Shown here piece by piece: positions 1,995-31,816 of a stretch of 64,000 nt of DNA (position 1 is its first letter; every line of letters starts with the position of its first letter). Location: contig NC_045139.1 in NCBI RefSeq assembly GCF_008831285.2, positions 21,744,412 to 21,808,411 on the forward strand. Direction: 5' to 3'. Source of the stretch: Nymphaea colorata. Lineage: Eukaryota > Streptophyta > Magnoliopsida > Nymphaeales > Nymphaeaceae. The notes beneath the pieces were generated by a model. It had not been told where the DNA came from. It saw only the letters and a list, made by a program, of their open reading frames with translations, and made no database searches. The position numbers were made by a program, and so were the translations under genes.

Positions 1995-2146
1995 CCCTTT
2001 TTCATTTTACTCCCGTATCGTGCAATATGGGGGTGTATCGCACGTACGATACGCGTACGATACGCATGCATATCGAGTATCGAATGTGTATCATATAGGT
2101 TTCTTCGACCGATACGCGTGCGTATCGTACAATACGAATAACATTG
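1995..2146. repeat. Subterminal GTATCG/CGATAC repeats of hAT family 1
   Basis: Many direct and inverted copies of a core resembling CGTACGATACGC are packed into about 150 bp at the 5' end of the hAT element. Arrays of short subterminal motifs are the usual transposase-binding zones of hAT elements. The same core recurs at 34150-34320. Confidence 0.75.
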
Positions 2147-3075
2147 GTTGTACTTAACTGCAATTTGGTTCCCTGCAATTTAAAATATTCATTCCACAGT
2201 GTGCTCAAGAAGAGCGGATCACGGTCACTGGTAATAGTTCGTGGCATGCCATGTAACTTTCCCACACAGCCATGAAAGCTTTTGGCCACTGACTTAGCTG
2301 AATAGGGGTGTGACAGCGGCATAAAGTGGGCATATTTGGAGAGGCGATCTACAACGACCATGGCACTGACTTTCCTCGCAAGGGAAGAAGGCCCTTGACG
2401 AAGTCCATCTAAAGATCCTCCCAAATGAGCTCTAGGATGGGCAGGGGCTGAAGCAATCCAGCTGGTTTTAGGGAGTCATTCTTATTTCACTGAGAGATGT
2501 CACAGTTCCTCATGTATTCTCGTAGGGCCTTCTTCTGCCAGGCCAGAAAAACATGAGATGTATTCGCCGATACGTTTCTTCTGCTCCCTCATGGCTAAAC
2601 CAGTTCGCATTATAGAAATGATTCGTAAGTACTCTAGGTAAGTCTAATTCAGAAGGAATGAAGATCCTGCCATTGTAGTAGAGGTATGGCTCCTGCCAAG
2701 TGTACCCATAACTCCTCTGAGTGCTGGACTGCAGTTGGGCCTTGATGCCTTGGACAGAATCAGCCTGTTGGTGAGCCACCTGAATCTGATCCCACATCGC
2801 TGCTTGAACCTGAGACAAAATCATTAGAGCAGCTTGGTTTAGATGCTCTACAGCACGCGATAATCCGTTTGCTGCATAGTTTTCTTTTCCTTTCCAGAAC
2901 GTCCCTTCAAAGTAGAATTCCATTAATTTAAGTATCCATTTTTGAAGGACTGGTGAAAGAATCTGCTGCTATAGGCAGAATTTAAGACTACTGTGGTCAG
3001 TCAACATAACAAATCTTCTTCCCGTGAGATAATACCTCCATTTCATGACTGCGAACCCAATTCCAAGACCAAATG
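2147..3075 (-). pseudogene. Ty3/gypsy pol fragment: RNase H, H2C2 zinc finger, integrase core
   Basis: In coding order (right to left), RNase H remnants lie at about 3040-2880: YYLTGRRFVMLTDHSSLK, then GKENYAANGLSRA. An H2C2-type integrase zinc-binding region lies at about 2650-2520, with HEGAEETYRRIH followed by FFWPGRRR. The catalytic core at about 2385-2155 shows VVVDRLSKYAHF and TITSDRDPLFLS, giving two of the three DDE acidic residues. The frame ends at LQLST where the hAT element is inserted, so the last catalytic Glu and the C-terminus are missing from the window. Stops between blocks make it a pseudogene. No flanking LTR was recognised. Confidence 0.85.
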
Positions 3076-13761: not shown

Positions 13762-14678
13762 AGGGCCTGCAGAGGAAATTTATTGTAAATTTTTTTTAAA
13801 AAAATTAATTCATGAAATGAAAAAAAAAATTGGACCGTTGGAGGTGATTCTAGAAATATATTTTCCAAAAAAAATTTTAACACAAGGGTGAAATTTTTTT
13901 TGGACATTTTTTTTTGACATTTGAAAGAAAAAGGGAGGAAAGAGGAGGAAGGAGGGAAGAAGAGGGAGGAAAGAAGAAGGGAAGGAGGGAGGAGGAATAA
14001 TGGACGGGGAGAAAGAAGAAGAGAAGAAGGGAAGGAGAAGAGGGGAAGAGGGCATGGCGAGGAGGGAAGGAAAAAAGGGGAAGAGGGCACGGCGAGGAGG
14101 GGAGGGGAAAGGGGAAGAAGGGAAGGAGAAGAGAGGAAGAGGGCATGGCGAGGAAGGAAGGAAGGAGAAGAGGGGAAGAGGGCACGGCGAGGAAGGAGTA
14201 GGGAAGAAGGAAAGGAGAAGAGGGAAAGAAGGGAAAGAGAAGATGGGAAAAAGGGGAAGAGGGCATGGCGAGGAGGGAAGGAGAAGAGGGGAAGACGGTT
14301 TGGGTGAGGGTTTCAGGTGACGGTTTCTTCTCATCCTCCTTCTTCCTCCTCCTCTCTTCCCTTCCCTTCTTCATCCTCCTTCCTCCCTTTCCTTCTTCCT
14401 TCTCCTCCTCCTTTTCCTTCCCTTTCCTTCTTCCTTCTCCTCCTTCCTTCCCTTCCTCCTTCGCTCCCTTCTTCTTCCTCCCTTCTTCTTCCCTTCTTCC
14501 CTCCTTCCTCGTTCTTCCTCACCATTTCCACCAAACTAATAATTTTTCTTTTCAGAAAAATATTTCCTTTATAACAAAGAGAAGTTGGTTTTGGAAAAGG
14601 GGAAAATATTTCTCATTCTTTAATTCCAGAAATATATTTCTTTTTTAAAAAATATTTTTCTAGCCATCAAACGGCCAT
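13762..14678. mobile_element. Foldback element with purine arm and pyrimidine arm
   Basis: About 390 bp of almost pure G/A (13921-14310) is followed by about 200 bp of almost pure C/T (14325-14520), so the two arms can pair. Candidate ends are AGGGCCTGC on the left and, read inward, ATGGCCGTTTG on the right, each next to TAA (13759-13761 and 14679-14681), as in PIF/Tourist-like elements. The long open frames here are low-complexity artefacts. End assignment is tentative; the purine/pyrimidine structure is certain. Confidence 0.45.
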
Positions 14679-23671: not shown

Positions 23672-26600
23672 CACTCTCCCGTGACCCCGGACTCATGTTT
23701 TCTAAGATTGCCATGTCTGTACCTGCATCGTTGTACCCATACCCAAACATGTACACCAGTACCCATGTGACTTAAGTGTCTGTGAAGGCTGACATTAGAC
23801 GACATCAAGCCAAAGGCCAAGAGAGTGATTTTGCATAAATTTATAATTATAGTTCCAGTTGTAATTAATATACATTATACATCACGTTTGTATGTCAATT
23901 CAAATTTTAAACTATTTTTCATCATATGTTCATCTTTTTATTTTTATTTTTTGTTGATTATAATTACACTAGAAGACAATTTTATGAAAAGCAATGTAAA
24001 CATGGATATGATCATGTTGAGGGTCTATGTTCCATCGTTTTTCTTCATTTAGAATAGTACTTTTAGGTTTTTGTTTACAACCTGTTTGGATGGAGAGAGA
24101 GGGAGGGAAAGGAATGGAAAGAAAGGTCTTTCCTGTGACTAATTAATATGGAGGGAAAGGAAGAGAGAACTAATAACAGTGTTTGGATACAAGGGAGAGG
24201 AAAGGGAGGGGAAGGAAATAAGTTTTTAATCTAATTCCAATCTCTCCGAAAATAGAGAGATTGGAAGGGAAAGGAATGGATTATCATTCCCTTTCCTTTC
24301 TTCTCCTTTCCCTCCCCATTCCCTTCCCTTCCTTTCCCTCTCTTTCCCTTCATCCAAACAAAGCCTTGGACTTTTAGGTTTTAAAAATTTGAATTAAGAG
24401 TTGGTATCTAGGAAATTATAAGATTTTACATGGTCTATAGCATCAGAGCTTATTGTGTTAAAATCATGCATTTGCTTTCTATGTTACACGAGTTCTAGAC
24501 TTTAATTGCAGACCTTTATTAAATATGATCTTTCGAACTTCTAATTTTGTTTATCATCATGTTATGAAATGCTTAATGTGTTAGTGCCATCACAAATATT
24601 TGACTGTTTTGTTGCACTGATTAATAAGCATGTGTTTTCTTTTGACAAAGTTCAACTTTGTTGTTAATTTTAACAATTAATATTGCATTTTAGCAATTTC
24701 CCTTTTTTAAAGGAAATAATTAATGTGCCTAGTTCCACACAGGGTTAGGCTCAATTTACTTCCTAGGCTGCACCAAGCACTTTTGGCAGCATAGCTTATG
24801 CTTGTACAACCATTGGAGCAAAGGAAGAATAACTGTGGATGGAGCACAATAACTAGTACTGGATAGTCAAGACATAAAATATGCATATAAGAGACAGAAG
24901 ACATAAGGAAAGGAAACCAAAATAAAAAAAAATGGAGAAAGAAGCAAAAAAGGGAAGACGGAAAAAAATAAGGGGGGAGAAAGGAAAACTAGAACAAGAG
25001 GAAAAGTAAGGAAAAAACACTTTCTTAAAACATTCTTTTTTCATTTAGTGCCAATTTAAGTCTAGGAGGTGCCCAGGTGGCTACCTAGATACAACAGCCC
25101 ACTCGGAAAGGGGGCCACCCAATGCCCAGGCACACCTATATGTGCATCTAGGCATCCTTCTGACTAATGCAGTATACAGTCCGCAAAGATCAGAAAGGTA
25201 GATGAGATCACTAAATCAATCAAATCAAAAACTATTCCAGTGCACATGATACATGCTCAAGGCGTTCTGCAGCCTTGCTTGCACAAGGGACGCGGGCAGA
25301 AATGAGTTGGTTTCATCACCACCTTTGTAAAGTTTTGACTTCTGTGCAAATTAATTAAACACAATGGAATCCTTAAGAGTCATTTAGCAGACTCTCCAAC
25401 AAGTATGTCAACCGTATACTTATATTTGATATTGATTGAAAAGAGGCAACGGCTTTGTTCCATAAACACAGGAAGTAGGACTCTTACCTCAACTACTGTT
25501 ACCTGGGTCTTCCCACAACTTGCTGTACTATATCTTGCATTTTTTTCATCATTAATTTAGGAATATTTGCTCAATAGTAAAGCAACCAACCGGAACAAAT
25601 GTTAGATTTTGATATCAATGTGAAATTGCTCACTATTAGTTCTGGAAAGTACGTCGTTGGTTTTACACAACATATCTTGTCGCTGGCAACTCTAGGCATG
25701 CATCTGGTTGAAAGAAAATAGCATTTAGATGCCTGATTTCAGTTTTGGACTATGCATTACTTTTTGCTCAGGAAGCTCACTTCAATCCACATGGTTTCTG
25801 GTGGCCAGCTTCACCCATATGTAACCTTCTCTATGTTCATGATCTCAAAGGGGGAAACAAAAAGAACCGATAAGCTAAAAAGAGATTGCATGACTGGTGC
25901 TATTGGGCCATATAGACACGAAAACTGACTGAAGCCATATGGGTTCCTGGATCAAAAGTTATAGGGCCATGACAGCCAGATGGTGGCTGATCTAGCCTTA
26001 AATAACAAATGTCACATAGGTACGGGTGCAGGTGCCGGTATGAGTACCAGTGCAGGTACGGGTGCAGACTATTTTCAAAAAACTTGGGTGCATGTTAACT
26101 TACTAAGAAATGATAAACAAGTAAACAACATAAAAGTATCTATGACAAGCAAACAACACAGAAAACATATATCAACATAAACAGTCAACAACACAGTGAA
26201 TACAGAAGATATATACCAAGGGCAGTGTGTTTAAGAAACCTATGAAAAACTTTAAGCATATGGACAAAAATACATATCAATCTCAAAGTAATCTTCTGCA
26301 TATATTGCAAAGTTGCAATGGAATGAGGAAAATCATCTATCAAACAACTAAGCAGCCCCTTAGAAAGTCAAATACGAACCACAACTCAGCATTGTGGAAC
26401 TGGAATCTAAGTCTTAAATGCCGAAATGGAACAGGTTATAGGAGCATGCAAGACGCACAATTATCTAAAAAAAATTGTTGCATATAAATGTAAAAGAGAA
26501 AGGGCGGACAATATGTTTTTCGAAGAAGAAAAAGAAAAATAGTTGATGTAGGTCATAGAAGAAGGGCAGGTGATTCTAAACCTGCGCTCGAAGTAAACGG

Positions 26601-29600
26601 ATAGACTGCTGGACAATAAGAGACTGCTGGAAAAAAAAAGAAGCATAAATATGAAGCTTTAACAAAAATGGCCAAAACAGTCTCTGGAGAAGTCGTTGAA
26701 CAACAACAGCTACGTCGCATTAGCCGGAGACATTGCCTCTCCCTGAAAACTGCTGAAACGAATCGACAGAGCAGCCAACGTCGCTGGAGAACTCCACATG
26801 CGCTACTGCTGTGGGTAATACCCTTGACAAAAGTCGAGGGTTTGCGTTGTGTTGAAAAGGAAAAAAAAAAAAACCTAATTTAAAGACAGTTTTGGACTCA
26901 GTCAACTTTGACCCTATCTAACACGGGTACCGCAATACCGGTACGGGTAAGGGTGCGGCCATGGGTGTGGCCGGGGTATGCCGTTGACGTACCTGAGGTC
27001 GAATCCGACCATTTTTGGACTCGGTCAAAGTTGACCAAGTCCAAAAATGTTCGATTTAGGTTTTTAATGTAGTTTACATTTTAACGCGGTTTACATTTTT
27101 CACATTAAAAATATCATAACCATTAAGTTTTTCATCGACGGTTTTGCTTTATCACTTCGTCACCGACGACGGGAGGCGAATGGCAAGCGGCTAGTGGTGA
27201 TTCACCTCGATGTTTCTGCTTCTTCCTCTTCAACGAGCTCTTTCTTTTGATCTTGCTTGGTTTTTAGGGTTTTCGAATGCAGTAATTGGTTTCATCTAAA
27301 GGATCTTTCGTTGTTTTGTGAAGATCGAGTTCTTTTCTTCATTTTTTGTTCTTTCGTTTTCTCATATGTGCCTATGTACTTGTCTGAAGAGTTTTAGAGC
27401 GTCGTAGTTATTTTTTGTTTTCTCTCATTTGTTTTGTGATGGTTTTGCTTATTTCCGAAGGGTTTGTTTCTTTGTTTCTTTCAAGGGTTCGTTTCTTTGT
27501 TTAAATCTTTTCAATAATGAAATTTCTACAACATTCTATATGCAAATATGATTTCCATTTGTTTGGTAGATCATTTGTTTTTTGTGTTTTTCTTCCATGT
27601 GTGCTTGCACGGTTTTCTGGTAGATCATCTCTTTTTTTTTTACGTGCTTGAATTGTTGATATATATTTTTAGTTATTGGTTATAGTCTATGTCACACAGG
27701 TACTTCTTTTTATGAGGAGTACCTGCACGGTACTGGTACGGTACCGGTATGGGTACCGGTATGGGTCTAGGTATGGCAAAAATATGGTCAACGAAGCACC
27801 GGGTACGGTCAACGTACCCGGATTATTTTTGTCCATTTTTGGACTCGGTCAGCTTTGACCGAGTCCAAAGTTGTCCATTTTTGAACAGTCAAAAACCCTA
27901 ACCCCTTCTCGAGTGCCCGACTTCCTTGCCTTCCTCCTGGTTCGGCCTGCCACACTAGACAATGAATGGGCAAGTTCAGGTAGCTCGCCCAAGACAACGC
28001 CCTTCTTCTGCCGAGATTAGGCACCAAGATCAACTCCAGCGAAGGCCTTGGTCGACTTCTTTCTAGATCGAGCAGGGGCGCTAGAAGAGGTGTCGATGAG
28101 GTTGATGAGCTCGGCCAACGCGGCGCGTGTCTTCTGCGGAGGAACGGTGGTAGCAGAGGAGTCAGCGGTTCTTTTGGCCCTTGCCCACGTGACTGGTACT
28201 CGGTTTTCTTGGTCGCTGGACATGGCTATGGCGGTCGGGTGACTCTACCAAGAGCAAGAAGAAGGGGAGAAGAGTGGAGGAAAGGAGAGAGATGGCCTCC
28301 TTTTGAATGCTCGTAGATCGAGCGAGGGCCCGTACGAAGGAAATGGCGCTCCTTTTCATTTCATCAAATTTTTTGTTTCCCACCTCATTTCATCAAATTT
28401 TTTGTTTCCCACCCGCCACTTCAATTGATCTGGCCAGTTCCTGAAATAAAACAAGATTTCGGGTCTGGATCAGACCTAGGTCTTCCGGGTCTTGGAATTG
28501 TTTCCAGTTTTGAGTGGGAATTGCTCAATCTGCCCACGTTTTTTAGTTATAAATTAAAAATCCCCCTCTCTTTTCCTATTACCCTTTTCACTCTAAACAT
28601 TTCTTGTATTCCTCACAACTTTTCATTTTCATACTGTGTTTTGGATCATAATTTATGAATTGTTTGAATTATATATATATATATATATATCCACGTGTGT
28701 ACGGCCGTACCCCCGCACCCAAATTTTTTGAAAATGTTCCATACCCGCACCCGTACCCGTACCTATGTGACATAGGTTATAGTTTTTTGCTTTTCAAATA
28801 TAAGTTGTAATGGCTGATAAAGGAAAAGGAACGATACCTATAAGTGGAAGTGGAAATATGGCAAGAAGCAGTAGACTGTAGTAGTGTTAATACCGCTGCT
28901 GCAGTAGAAATGGATTCATCTCAGCCTCTTTGGTGCTATGTCAAAAAACTAGGAAAAGCTAGTGGTGGGGGTAGGAATATAATTTTTTTCTTGCAATTTC
29001 TGTAATAATCATTTTACTGGCTCTTATACACGTCACAAGGCACATTTATTGCATATCAAAGGCCATGGAATTAATCCATGTGAAAAAATTAGCAAAGAAT
29101 CGATGAAGGTATTGAAAAAAGAACAAGATGCAGCTGAGACAAAAAAATATTCAACCAAGTCAAGTGAACTATCTATTCCTCTTTATGCAATAAGGTGAAG
29201 ATGCTTCAAAGAAAAGACAAAAAAAACATGGGCGATTGGACCTACCAAAACATTAGCACAAAGCATTCAAAAATATGGGAAGGGTAGAGATGGATAGAAG
29301 GATCAGAAGGTTCTTTTTTGCAAGTTCACTTCCTTTTAATGTAGTCAGAACTCTTTATTGGAAAGATGTTGTTACAGATTTGGCTAATAGCAGTTTGGTT
29401 GGTTATGTAACCTCAAGTTCAGAGAAGTTGAGAACAATAATTATTGCATAAGAGAATGCAAACATCAAAAAATTATTAGAGAAAAAGAAATTTTCATGGA
29501 CACAATATGGAGTATCCATTGTTTCTGACGATGGACTGATATACAAAGACGACCACTGATAAATTTTATTGCTTATTCGCTTAATGGACCAATCTTTTTG

Positions 29601-31224
29601 AAATGTGTTGATGCATTTGGGGAGTACAAAGACGTTGAGTATTTAAAAGGGCTATTCATAGAAGTCATCAAAGAAGTAGGTGAAGACAATGTTGTGCAAA
29701 TTATTACTGATAATGCTCTAGTTTGCCAACAAGCAGGGATGAATTTGGCAAGTGATCCCAAGTATAGTCACATATTTTGGACTCCTTGTATGGCACACAG
29801 TATAAATCTAGCACTTAAAAAGTGTTTGCAACCCATCAAAAGAAGATACAAACACTGTTAAATTTTATTCATGGATTGAGGAGCTTGAGCATGATGTCAG
29901 AAACATCCGAAATTTTGTTGTAAACCACCACAAAGCTCTTACTATATTTAATAAGCATTCTGATTTGAAATTGTTGAAGGTAGCATAGACTCATTTTGCA
30001 TCCATTATTGTAATGATGAAAAGAATAAAGCAGGTGAAACATGCATTAACACTTATGGTGATTGACAATGATTGGGAGTTTTATCGGAATGATGACATTG
30101 TGAAGGGTCAAGAAATGAAAAAATGTATTTTAGATGATGAATGATAACAATGGTTGGATAAGATTACATATTTTCTGCAGTTTACAGAGCTTATTTGACA
30201 GATGCTGAGAGAAGTTGATAAAGAAGGGGCCATGCTTCATAGAGTTTATGATATGTGGAATAACATGATTGAAAAAATTCAAAACATCATTTTTAGACAT
30301 GAGAAGAAGAATGCTGCACTTGATGATTCTGAGTTTTTCGATCATGTGCATAAAATTTTAGTAAGAAGATGGAATAGAAGCAACAACCCTTTGCATTGTA
30401 TGACACACTCCTTAAATCCCAAATATTATGAACAAACATGGTTGGCAGGAGGTACTGGTCGTGTTCCTCCTAATCGAGATCCAGAAATATCAAACAATAG
30501 GGAGATATGTTTGTGAAGACTATTTTCCAATTCTCATCGGTTGAAGACAATAAATAATGAGTTTGCGAGCTTCTCTGGTGGAAGAAGTGATTCATTACAA
30601 GCTGAAATGGCAAGAGATGAAGAAAATCATGTTAATTGGTGGTTATGTTTTGGGGCATCGACACCAAATCTCCAACAACTTGCGTTGAAGTTATTATCTC
30701 AACCTGCAACCTCTTTATGTTGTGAAAGAAACTAGAGCACTTATTCTCAAATTCACAACATCAAAAGAAATAAGCTAACTAGTAAGCGAGCAAAAGATTT
30801 AGTTTTTAGTTTATGTCCACTCCAACCTACCGCTTACTTTCACATACTTCAGATGATTACAAGTATTTCTTTTTTTTTTTTTCATCTTTAATATGTATAC
30901 ATATGTATTAATGTATATTATGTTGGTTGTTTAAAGTTAATATTAACTTAAATTATATTGTGATTTTGTTGCAACTTGAAGTTCAGGATCATCCAAGTAT
31001 TGGTATGTTAATCCGGAAGACATTGACGTGAAACTTGAAGGAGAACATGATTTGAATGCTCTTAATATGGACCTTAAAGAACTGTTGTTCCTTTTAATCT
31101 TGATGATGCGACTAAGGAGAATCAAGAAAGCTGATATATTTTGTATGTTAATTACTTCCATACTTTGTTTATTAGTATGATAGTATCTATAAATTTTGGA
31201 TCATGATTTATGAATATGTTATTC

Positions 31225-31257
<33 letters not shown>

Positions 31258-31816
31258 ACGGCCGTACCCTGCACCTAAGTTTTTTGAAAATGGTCTGTAC
31301 CCGTACCCATACCTATGTAACATAGCTTTGACCGAGTCCAAAAAATGCCAAATACGTAACTGGGTACGTTGCCCATACCCGATAAGGTCAAACAAGTACC
31401 CAAGCCACACCCAAGTGTGTACTGGTACCCGTACGGGTATCGTACCAGTACGGAGCTGGTACTGCTCCCGTGTAACAGAGTAAATAACCAATTACCAACA
31501 GTGGTTCAACTTATAAAAACCAAATACAAGTTGCCCAGCTCTTACAAACTTGACAAGGCTACTGAAACAATTGAAAGAAATCAAGGCTCACATTAGCAAA
31601 GTATTGGGCACTGACATCATTGGCGGTGCTGGTCAGCCGCAGGAAAGGTTGGCATTCAGTTTCCAGGAACCTAATTCATGATTGTATGATAAGGATGGAC
31701 TATCAAACACTGGAAAGATCATTGGTTTAGTTGTGTTGGAGTTGGATCTAACTGCATGCAGATCCACATGTCCTCATTTGTAAAAAATGTATTTTAGAGG
31801 GAATTTTCATTTGGTG

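What the first reader, a model, noticed from the sequence alone, without database searches (positions are those of the whole stretch)
25999..31488. Three hAT elements nested one inside another, each with a perfect 8-bp target duplication
C is flanked by TAAATAAC, B inside it by CTTTGACC, and A inside B by GTTATAGT. Removing A then B restores continuous sequence each time. The ends of all three are related (CTATGTCACAYAGGTAC-like), so members of one family inserted into each other, giving a clear order C, then B, then A. Perfect duplications persist although B's transposase is full of stops.
Basis: partly seen in the sequence, partly recalled or inferred. Interest (0 to 1): 0.85.

Follow-up and report, generated by a model that had tools for sequence, protein, structure and literature searches.

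The report
Three nested hAT transposons, one gene-carrying
Three related jumping genes in a plant genome landed one inside another in a clear order, and the innermost carries a piece of a cell-cycle gene copied from elsewhere in the genome; it is a tidy example of things already known in plants.

Summary
C (26007-31480), B (26914-31325) and A (27687-28775) are hAT-type elements with related ends and exact 8-bp target duplications; a window-wide scan found these three and no other pair. The window's own genome was searchable (407.8 Mb, size fits Nymphaea colorata). All 3 informative B copies (of 23 examined) lack A; 9 of 10 C relatives lack B and read through its target. Divergence from relatives rises A 2.3%, B 5.8%, C 10.6%, matching the nested order. 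Only B shows a transposase (DUF659 plus hAT dimerisation region, broken). C's empty site could not be tested: its left flank is unique in this genome. Four more A copies were found, and 11 of 17 shorter or related elements match the same gene's upstream region. The captured frame shows no sign of selection. The family has about 2,370 end matches in the genome, so some self-nesting is expected; a double nest is mildly unusual. New example of known kinds.

The parts
25999..26006 (.). left target duplication of C (TAAATAAC)
26007..31480 (-). element C, outermost, non-autonomous, 1054 bp without B; orientation opposite to A and B
   Evidence: ends and TSD; 29 further loci with C-like sequence
26894..26913 (.). 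left part of C's subterminal near-palindrome, split by B; ends with target CTTTGACC (26906-26913)
   Evidence: read through without B in 9 of 10 C relatives
26914..31325 (+). element B, 3315 bp without A; degraded transposase-coding hAT
   Evidence: TSD and ends; Pfam; long relatives at 82-89%
27017..27042 (.). B's own copy of the subterminal near-palindrome
27679..27686 (.). left target duplication of A (GTTATAGT)
   Evidence: uninterrupted in B copies L065, L067, L094
27687..28775 (+). element A, innermost, 1089 bp, gene-carrying non-autonomous hAT (Pack-hAT)
   Evidence: ends and TSD; four further copies L002-L005
27841..27866 (.). A's copy of the subterminal near-palindrome
27907..28608 (-). 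captured upstream region and exon 1 of an A-type cyclin gene, antisense to A; start codon at 28223-28221, in-frame stop inside
   Evidence: 83% to L061 on contig C3; host gene exons
28776..28783 (.). right target duplication of A
29416..29532 (+). B transposase, start of DUF659
   Evidence: E 3.4e-4, below Pfam cut-off on its own
29547..29825 (+). B transposase, rest of DUF659, in another reading frame
   Evidence: E 4.3e-28; position
30613..30807 (+). B transposase, hAT C-terminal dimerisation region
   Evidence: E 6.2e-11
31326..31333 (.). right target duplication of B (CTTTGACC)
31334..31480 (-). remainder of C, right of B
   Evidence: aligned with relatives
31481..31488 (.). right target duplication of C

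Best explanation
Three successive cut-and-paste insertions of related hAT transposons. C inserted into DNA whose left flank is single-copy; a transposase-coding element B inserted into C's subterminal near-palindrome; A, a non-autonomous hAT carrying a captured cyclin gene fragment, inserted into the part of B upstream of its transposase. Each insertion made an 8-bp staggered cut that left a direct duplication. Shown: anatomy, duplications, related copies with the same borders, paralogous empty sites for A and B, donor gene of A's cargo, and divergence in the expected order. Inferred: that a transposase of the B lineage moved all three, and that the capture went through DNA (the cargo includes sequence upstream of the start codon).
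For: Exact duplications at all three levels; window-wide scan gives only these three. A copies L002-L004 end at the same bases (duplications 7/8), L005 has an exact duplication with a diverged left end. A's site is uninterrupted in L065 (87% over 227 columns), L067 (84% over 234) and L094 (90%). B's target is read through in 9 of 10 C relatives. Divergence A 24/1056, B 46/792, C 110/1040, Fisher p 7e-5 for A below B and 2e-4 for B below C. DUF659 and hAT dimerisation in B. Cargo: A 221-922 matches L061 4795-4053 at 83%, and L061 holds Cyclin_N and Cyclin_C exons.
Against: C's empty site is untested and its outermost bases deviate from the family; only 4 of 15 C-type candidates gave clear ends with a duplication. 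Two of the three empty A sites (L067, L094) have 8 extra bases just left of the target, and in L067 these resemble the target, so an excision footprint there is not excluded. The divergence comparison uses different numbers of relatives, picked among best hits. Catalytic residues and zinc finger of B were not confirmed.
Confidence: 0.96

Rival explanations
1. One composite element: the nest moved or amplified as a unit, so the inner borders are internal features and not insertion scars.
For: The ends of A, B and C are alike, so outer ends could in principle have mobilised the whole (inference).
Against: B copies without A and C relatives without B; each element has its own duplication.
Confidence: 0.02
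2. The family prefers its own subterminal palindrome as target, so that self-nesting is directed and not chance.
For: B sits in the palindrome shared by A, B and C; a second nest was seen, a 358-bp element inside a C copy (L063 4591-4948); a double nest is expected only about 0.07-0.6 times per genome at 2,000-4,000 copies of 1.2 kb (rough; 2,371 end matches).
Against: Of 17 other verified insertions none abuts family sequence on either side, though 3 of 34 flanks hold family pieces about 300-700 bp away, and insertion of L010 into a decayed B-like stretch is not excluded; A did not go into a palindrome; 31 target sites share only a weak NTTWWAAN consensus.
Confidence: 0.07
3. The cyclin-like part of A is the original and the 'cyclin gene' acquired it from a transposon.
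For: 11 short elements share upstream sequence with the gene, so the direction for that stretch alone is not proved.
Against: At L061 exon 1 is followed by further Cyclin_N and Cyclin_C exons, and one search lists no pair of hAT ends with duplication in L061.
Confidence: 0.02

Closest known systems
hAT superfamily DNA transposons (Class II, 8-bp TSD)
   Same: 8-bp duplications, short inverted ends, DUF659 plus PF05699 transposase in B
   Different: Not placed in a named hAT family; the ends CTATGTCACA do not match the Ac ends that I recall
Pack-hAT / Pack-TYPE elements (Gisby and Catoni 2022, PMC8903248; passages read)
   Same: Non-autonomous hAT with ends, duplication and a captured host gene fragment, in several copies
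   Different: Here a cyclin upstream region plus exon 1, probably in a water lily; the passages I saw concern maize, rice and a test in Arabidopsis
Gene fragments and nesting in maize Ds elements (PMC3260210; passages read)
   Same: hAT elements with captured gene pieces; one case of a Ds-like element nested in another
   Different: Here two nesting steps within one lineage; that paper calls gene capture by hAT rare and Ds nesting rarer than retrotransposon nesting
E2F-motif MITEs of Arabidopsis (as described in the review PMC13317346; passages read)
   Same: Short non-autonomous elements that spread cell-cycle-related DNA
   Different: The cyclin upstream stretch and A have no strict E2F site; of 8 short elements L011 and L013 have one each, near the left end and outside the cyclin-matching part

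Membership tests
hAT superfamily | 8-bp target duplication | tested here: met
   3 of 3 in the window; more at copies
hAT superfamily | short terminal inverted repeats | tested here: met
   mismatches to CTATGTCACA, left and right: A 0 and 0, B 2 and 1, C 2 and 2
hAT superfamily | transposase with hAT dimerisation domain (PF05699) | tested here: met
   B only, E 6.2e-11; DUF659 E 4.3e-28; no match of these pieces in A or C better than E 2
hAT superfamily | N-terminal BED-type zinc finger | tested here: inconclusive
   a C..C..H..H-like piece is seen, but no BED hit, only zf-C2H2_14 at E 0.16
hAT superfamily | catalytic DDE residues | not tested
   frame broken; no structural comparison made
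named hAT family (Ac, Tag1, Tip100) | placement in a transposase phylogeny | not tested
   no plant reference set on hand
Pack-hAT | hAT ends plus duplication without own transposase | tested here: met
   A shares with B only the right-end region and the subterminal motif
Pack-hAT | captured host gene fragment with identified donor | tested here: met
   A 221-922 against L061, cyclin gene
Pack-hAT | moved after capture (several copies with own duplications) | tested here: met
   L002, L003, L004 (7/8) and L005 (8/8)
Self-nested hAT as in double Ds | element of the same lineage inserted into another | tested here: met
   two levels
Self-nested hAT as in double Ds | causes chromosome breakage | not testable with these tools
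   needs an active transposase in plants

The most novel reading that the evidence does not exclude
A hAT lineage captured the 5' region and first exon of an A-type cyclin and spread it across the genome, as about 1.1-kb Pack-hATs and as about 550-690-bp derivatives; the dispersed copies, some antisense, might influence the donor cyclin through small RNAs or lend regulation to neighbouring genes.
Probability: 0.08. Interest if true: 0.6.

Novelty: new member of a known kind. Interest (0 to 1): 0.28.

Why it matters
The locus is a clean, ordered record of three hAT insertions with paralogous empty sites and relative ages. It documents gene capture by hAT elements, reported as rare in maize, with donor gene, element copies and probable deletion derivatives all in one genome. 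It does not open a long-standing question by itself.

Tried and rejected
Composite-element reading: rejected by empty sites. Self-targeting: not supported. E2F dispersal by the cargo: not supported. PDB search with the DUF659 piece: one chance-level hit, E 1. Paper search by end sequence listed 20 of 46 papers, none about transposons by title. Searches on nested hAT and on captured cyclin promoters (listings only) showed no matching case among the listed titles. Window ORFs scanned for context: 2 of 7 had Pfam hits. Not obtained: genome hits for B's left part, cyclin paralogs, copy number of the cyclin upstream cargo.
Full report
Observation. The three duplications are exact and at the stated places. 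Borders: C 26007-31480, B 26914-31325, A 27687-28775; lengths without inserts 1054, 3315 and 1089 bp. Random 8-mer pairs of this window agree with frequency 4.3e-5. A scan of the 64 kb for ends within 2 mismatches of CTATGTCACA, 100-6500 bp apart, plus an 8-bp duplication returned 3 window rows, exactly the nest (the other 33 of its 36 rows are in loci fetched by then and repeat some places). B's insertion splits a near-palindrome in C that A and B keep whole, and taking B out restores it.

What the elements are. B holds DUF659 in two pieces (E 3.4e-4 and 4.3e-28, in different frames) and a hAT dimerisation region (E 6.2e-11); no frame is open throughout. The transposase pieces find nothing in A or C better than E 2, against E 3e-47 or better in B as control. 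C lies in the opposite orientation: its left end resembles the right ends of A and B. A and B share the right-end region (80% over 142 columns) and the subterminal motif; C and B share only short end and motif matches. They are subfamilies of one lineage with different interiors.

Genome. The window lies at G000:C2:21744412-21808411 of a 407.8-Mb, 783-contig assembly. The 22-base right end occurs 394 times exactly (reversed control 0) and 2,371 times with up to 3 mismatches (control 3).

Borders in copies. Of 15 A-type or A-ended candidates (the window's own A included as L001), 14 gave ends plus a duplication with at most one mismatch; L007 did not. Of 15 C-type candidates, 4 were clear (L035, L038, L043, L057; L043 with a shortened right end); L044 and L045 had an exact duplication with damaged ends; the other 9 failed or gave poor ends.

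Empty sites. I looked at 23 B-type copies around A's site (L022, L026, L065, L067, L076-L094). Only 3 have B's sequence on the left of the site: L065, L067 and L094; all 3 are uninterrupted (84-90% across the junction). The other 20 belong to copies with a different sequence left of window position about 28788 and say nothing. L067 and L094 have 8 extra bases just left of the target; in L067 they read CCTTATAG, like the target, in L094 TCTTTATT. A footprint of an excised element or a short repeat change are both possible. Of 10 C relatives aligned (out of 29 C-type loci fetched), 9 read through B's target and one (L040) has a deletion there; L041 has a deletion just after (the joined C in that script lacked one base of the target, which shows as a one-base gap). 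C's left flank has a single match, itself, so no paralogous empty site was found for C; the right flank was not searched.

Order. Divergence from the majority of relatives: A 24/1056 (2.3%, 4 relatives), B 46/792 (5.8%, 8 relatives over about 800 bp, one of them over 350 sites only), C 110/1040 (10.6%, 10 relatives); Fisher p 7e-5 for A below B and 2e-4 for B below C. Values for the other members range over 2.2-7.9%, 2.7-8.3% and 6.8-15.1%. The chance that both duplication copies stay unchanged at these divergences is 0.69, 0.38 and 0.17, so their perfection beside a broken transposase is not remarkable.

Cargo of A. On the minus strand A reads as a cyclin-like N-terminus with an in-frame stop. 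A 221-922 (window 27907-28608) matches L061 4795-4053 at 83%. L061 holds a cyclin gene: exon 1 (no Pfam family of its own), Cyclin_N at 2.9e-27 in the next exon (best PDB relatives cyclin A2), a further Cyclin_N piece and two Cyclin_C pieces. I did not build a full gene model. The A3 subtype is my recollection. The cargo spans 405 bp upstream of the start codon and about 338 bp of coding sequence (coordinates). Five elements carry it (A, L002-L005); L007, an earlier branch with part of it, keeps about 21 bases that the five lack. Differences between A and the host gene are even over codon positions 1, 2, 3 (17, 16, 18), and pairs of A copies show no excess at position 3: no sign of selection. 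Of 17 other elements with A-like ends aligned to the host locus, 11 match it: all 11 match a stretch 76 bp further upstream that A lacks, 9 also match the stretch next to it; 6 match nothing. All 11 are 553-687 bp long. Deletion derivatives of the same capture is the simplest reading. No strict E2F motif lies in the host upstream stretch or in A (one relaxed match each); among 8 short elements L011 and L013 have one strict match each, near the left end and outside the cyclin-matching part.

Is self-nesting special? Of 17 other verified insertions none abuts family sequence within the library used (A, B, C and the 17 copies); 3 of 34 flanks hold family pieces 300 bp or more away. L010 has B-like pieces on its left, so insertion into a decayed B-like stretch is not excluded. 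One further nest was seen: a 358-bp element inside a C copy (L063 4591-4948, duplication 7/8). Under uniform insertion, 2,000 to 4,000 copies of 1.2 kb give about 6 to 24 nested insertions and 0.07 to 0.6 double nests per genome (rough). 31 target sites give a weak NTTWWAAN consensus. The triple nest is a mildly unusual accident on present evidence; directed self-targeting is not shown.

Known ground. PMC3260210 (passages) describes gene fragments in maize Ds elements, calls capture by hAT rare, and reports one Ds-like element nested in another. PMC8903248 (passages) describes Pack-hAT elements. 'hAT' does not occur in the held main text of the water lily genome paper, and a search for Nymphaea colorata with transposable elements and hAT listed 2 papers, on other plants (listing only). 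I claim nothing stronger about what is in print.

Noticed in passing
L063 4591-4948 (G000:C10): A 358-bp element of the same lineage nested in another C copy, duplication 7 of 8.
   Followed up: partly
L010, L011, L013, L014, L016, L019, L020, L021, L024, L028, L030: Elements of 553-687 bp with A-like ends that match the cyclin gene's upstream region, further upstream than A does.
   Followed up: partly
L067 (G000:C2:11329250-11330350) and L094 (G000:C10:592880-593130): B copies with 8 extra bases just left of A's target site; in L067 they resemble the target, so an excision footprint is possible.
   Followed up: partly
L002 2607-3151 and L004 661-1324: Other short hAT-like elements with exact duplications stand about 40 and 177 bp from A copies, an arrangement that tandem-insertion models of gene capture call for.
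   Followed up: no
L005 1208-2401: An A copy whose left end differs (A 1-87 at 71%, then normal from A 165), as if the terminus had been exchanged.
   Followed up: no
L076-L093, L022, L026: B-type copies whose sequence left of about window 28788 is unrelated to B's, in several versions: the transposase body has been joined to different 5' regions.
   Followed up: no
window 28356-28413: A 29-bp perfect tandem duplication inside the captured part of A; copies L002-L005 show it too and the host gene does not.
   Followed up: partly
window 2002-2923 (-): Broken integrase pieces (rve, Integrase_H2C2, both below Pfam cut-offs), remains of a retroelement.
   Followed up: no
window 13810-14648: GA/CT-rich low-complexity stretch open in several frames.
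   Followed up: no
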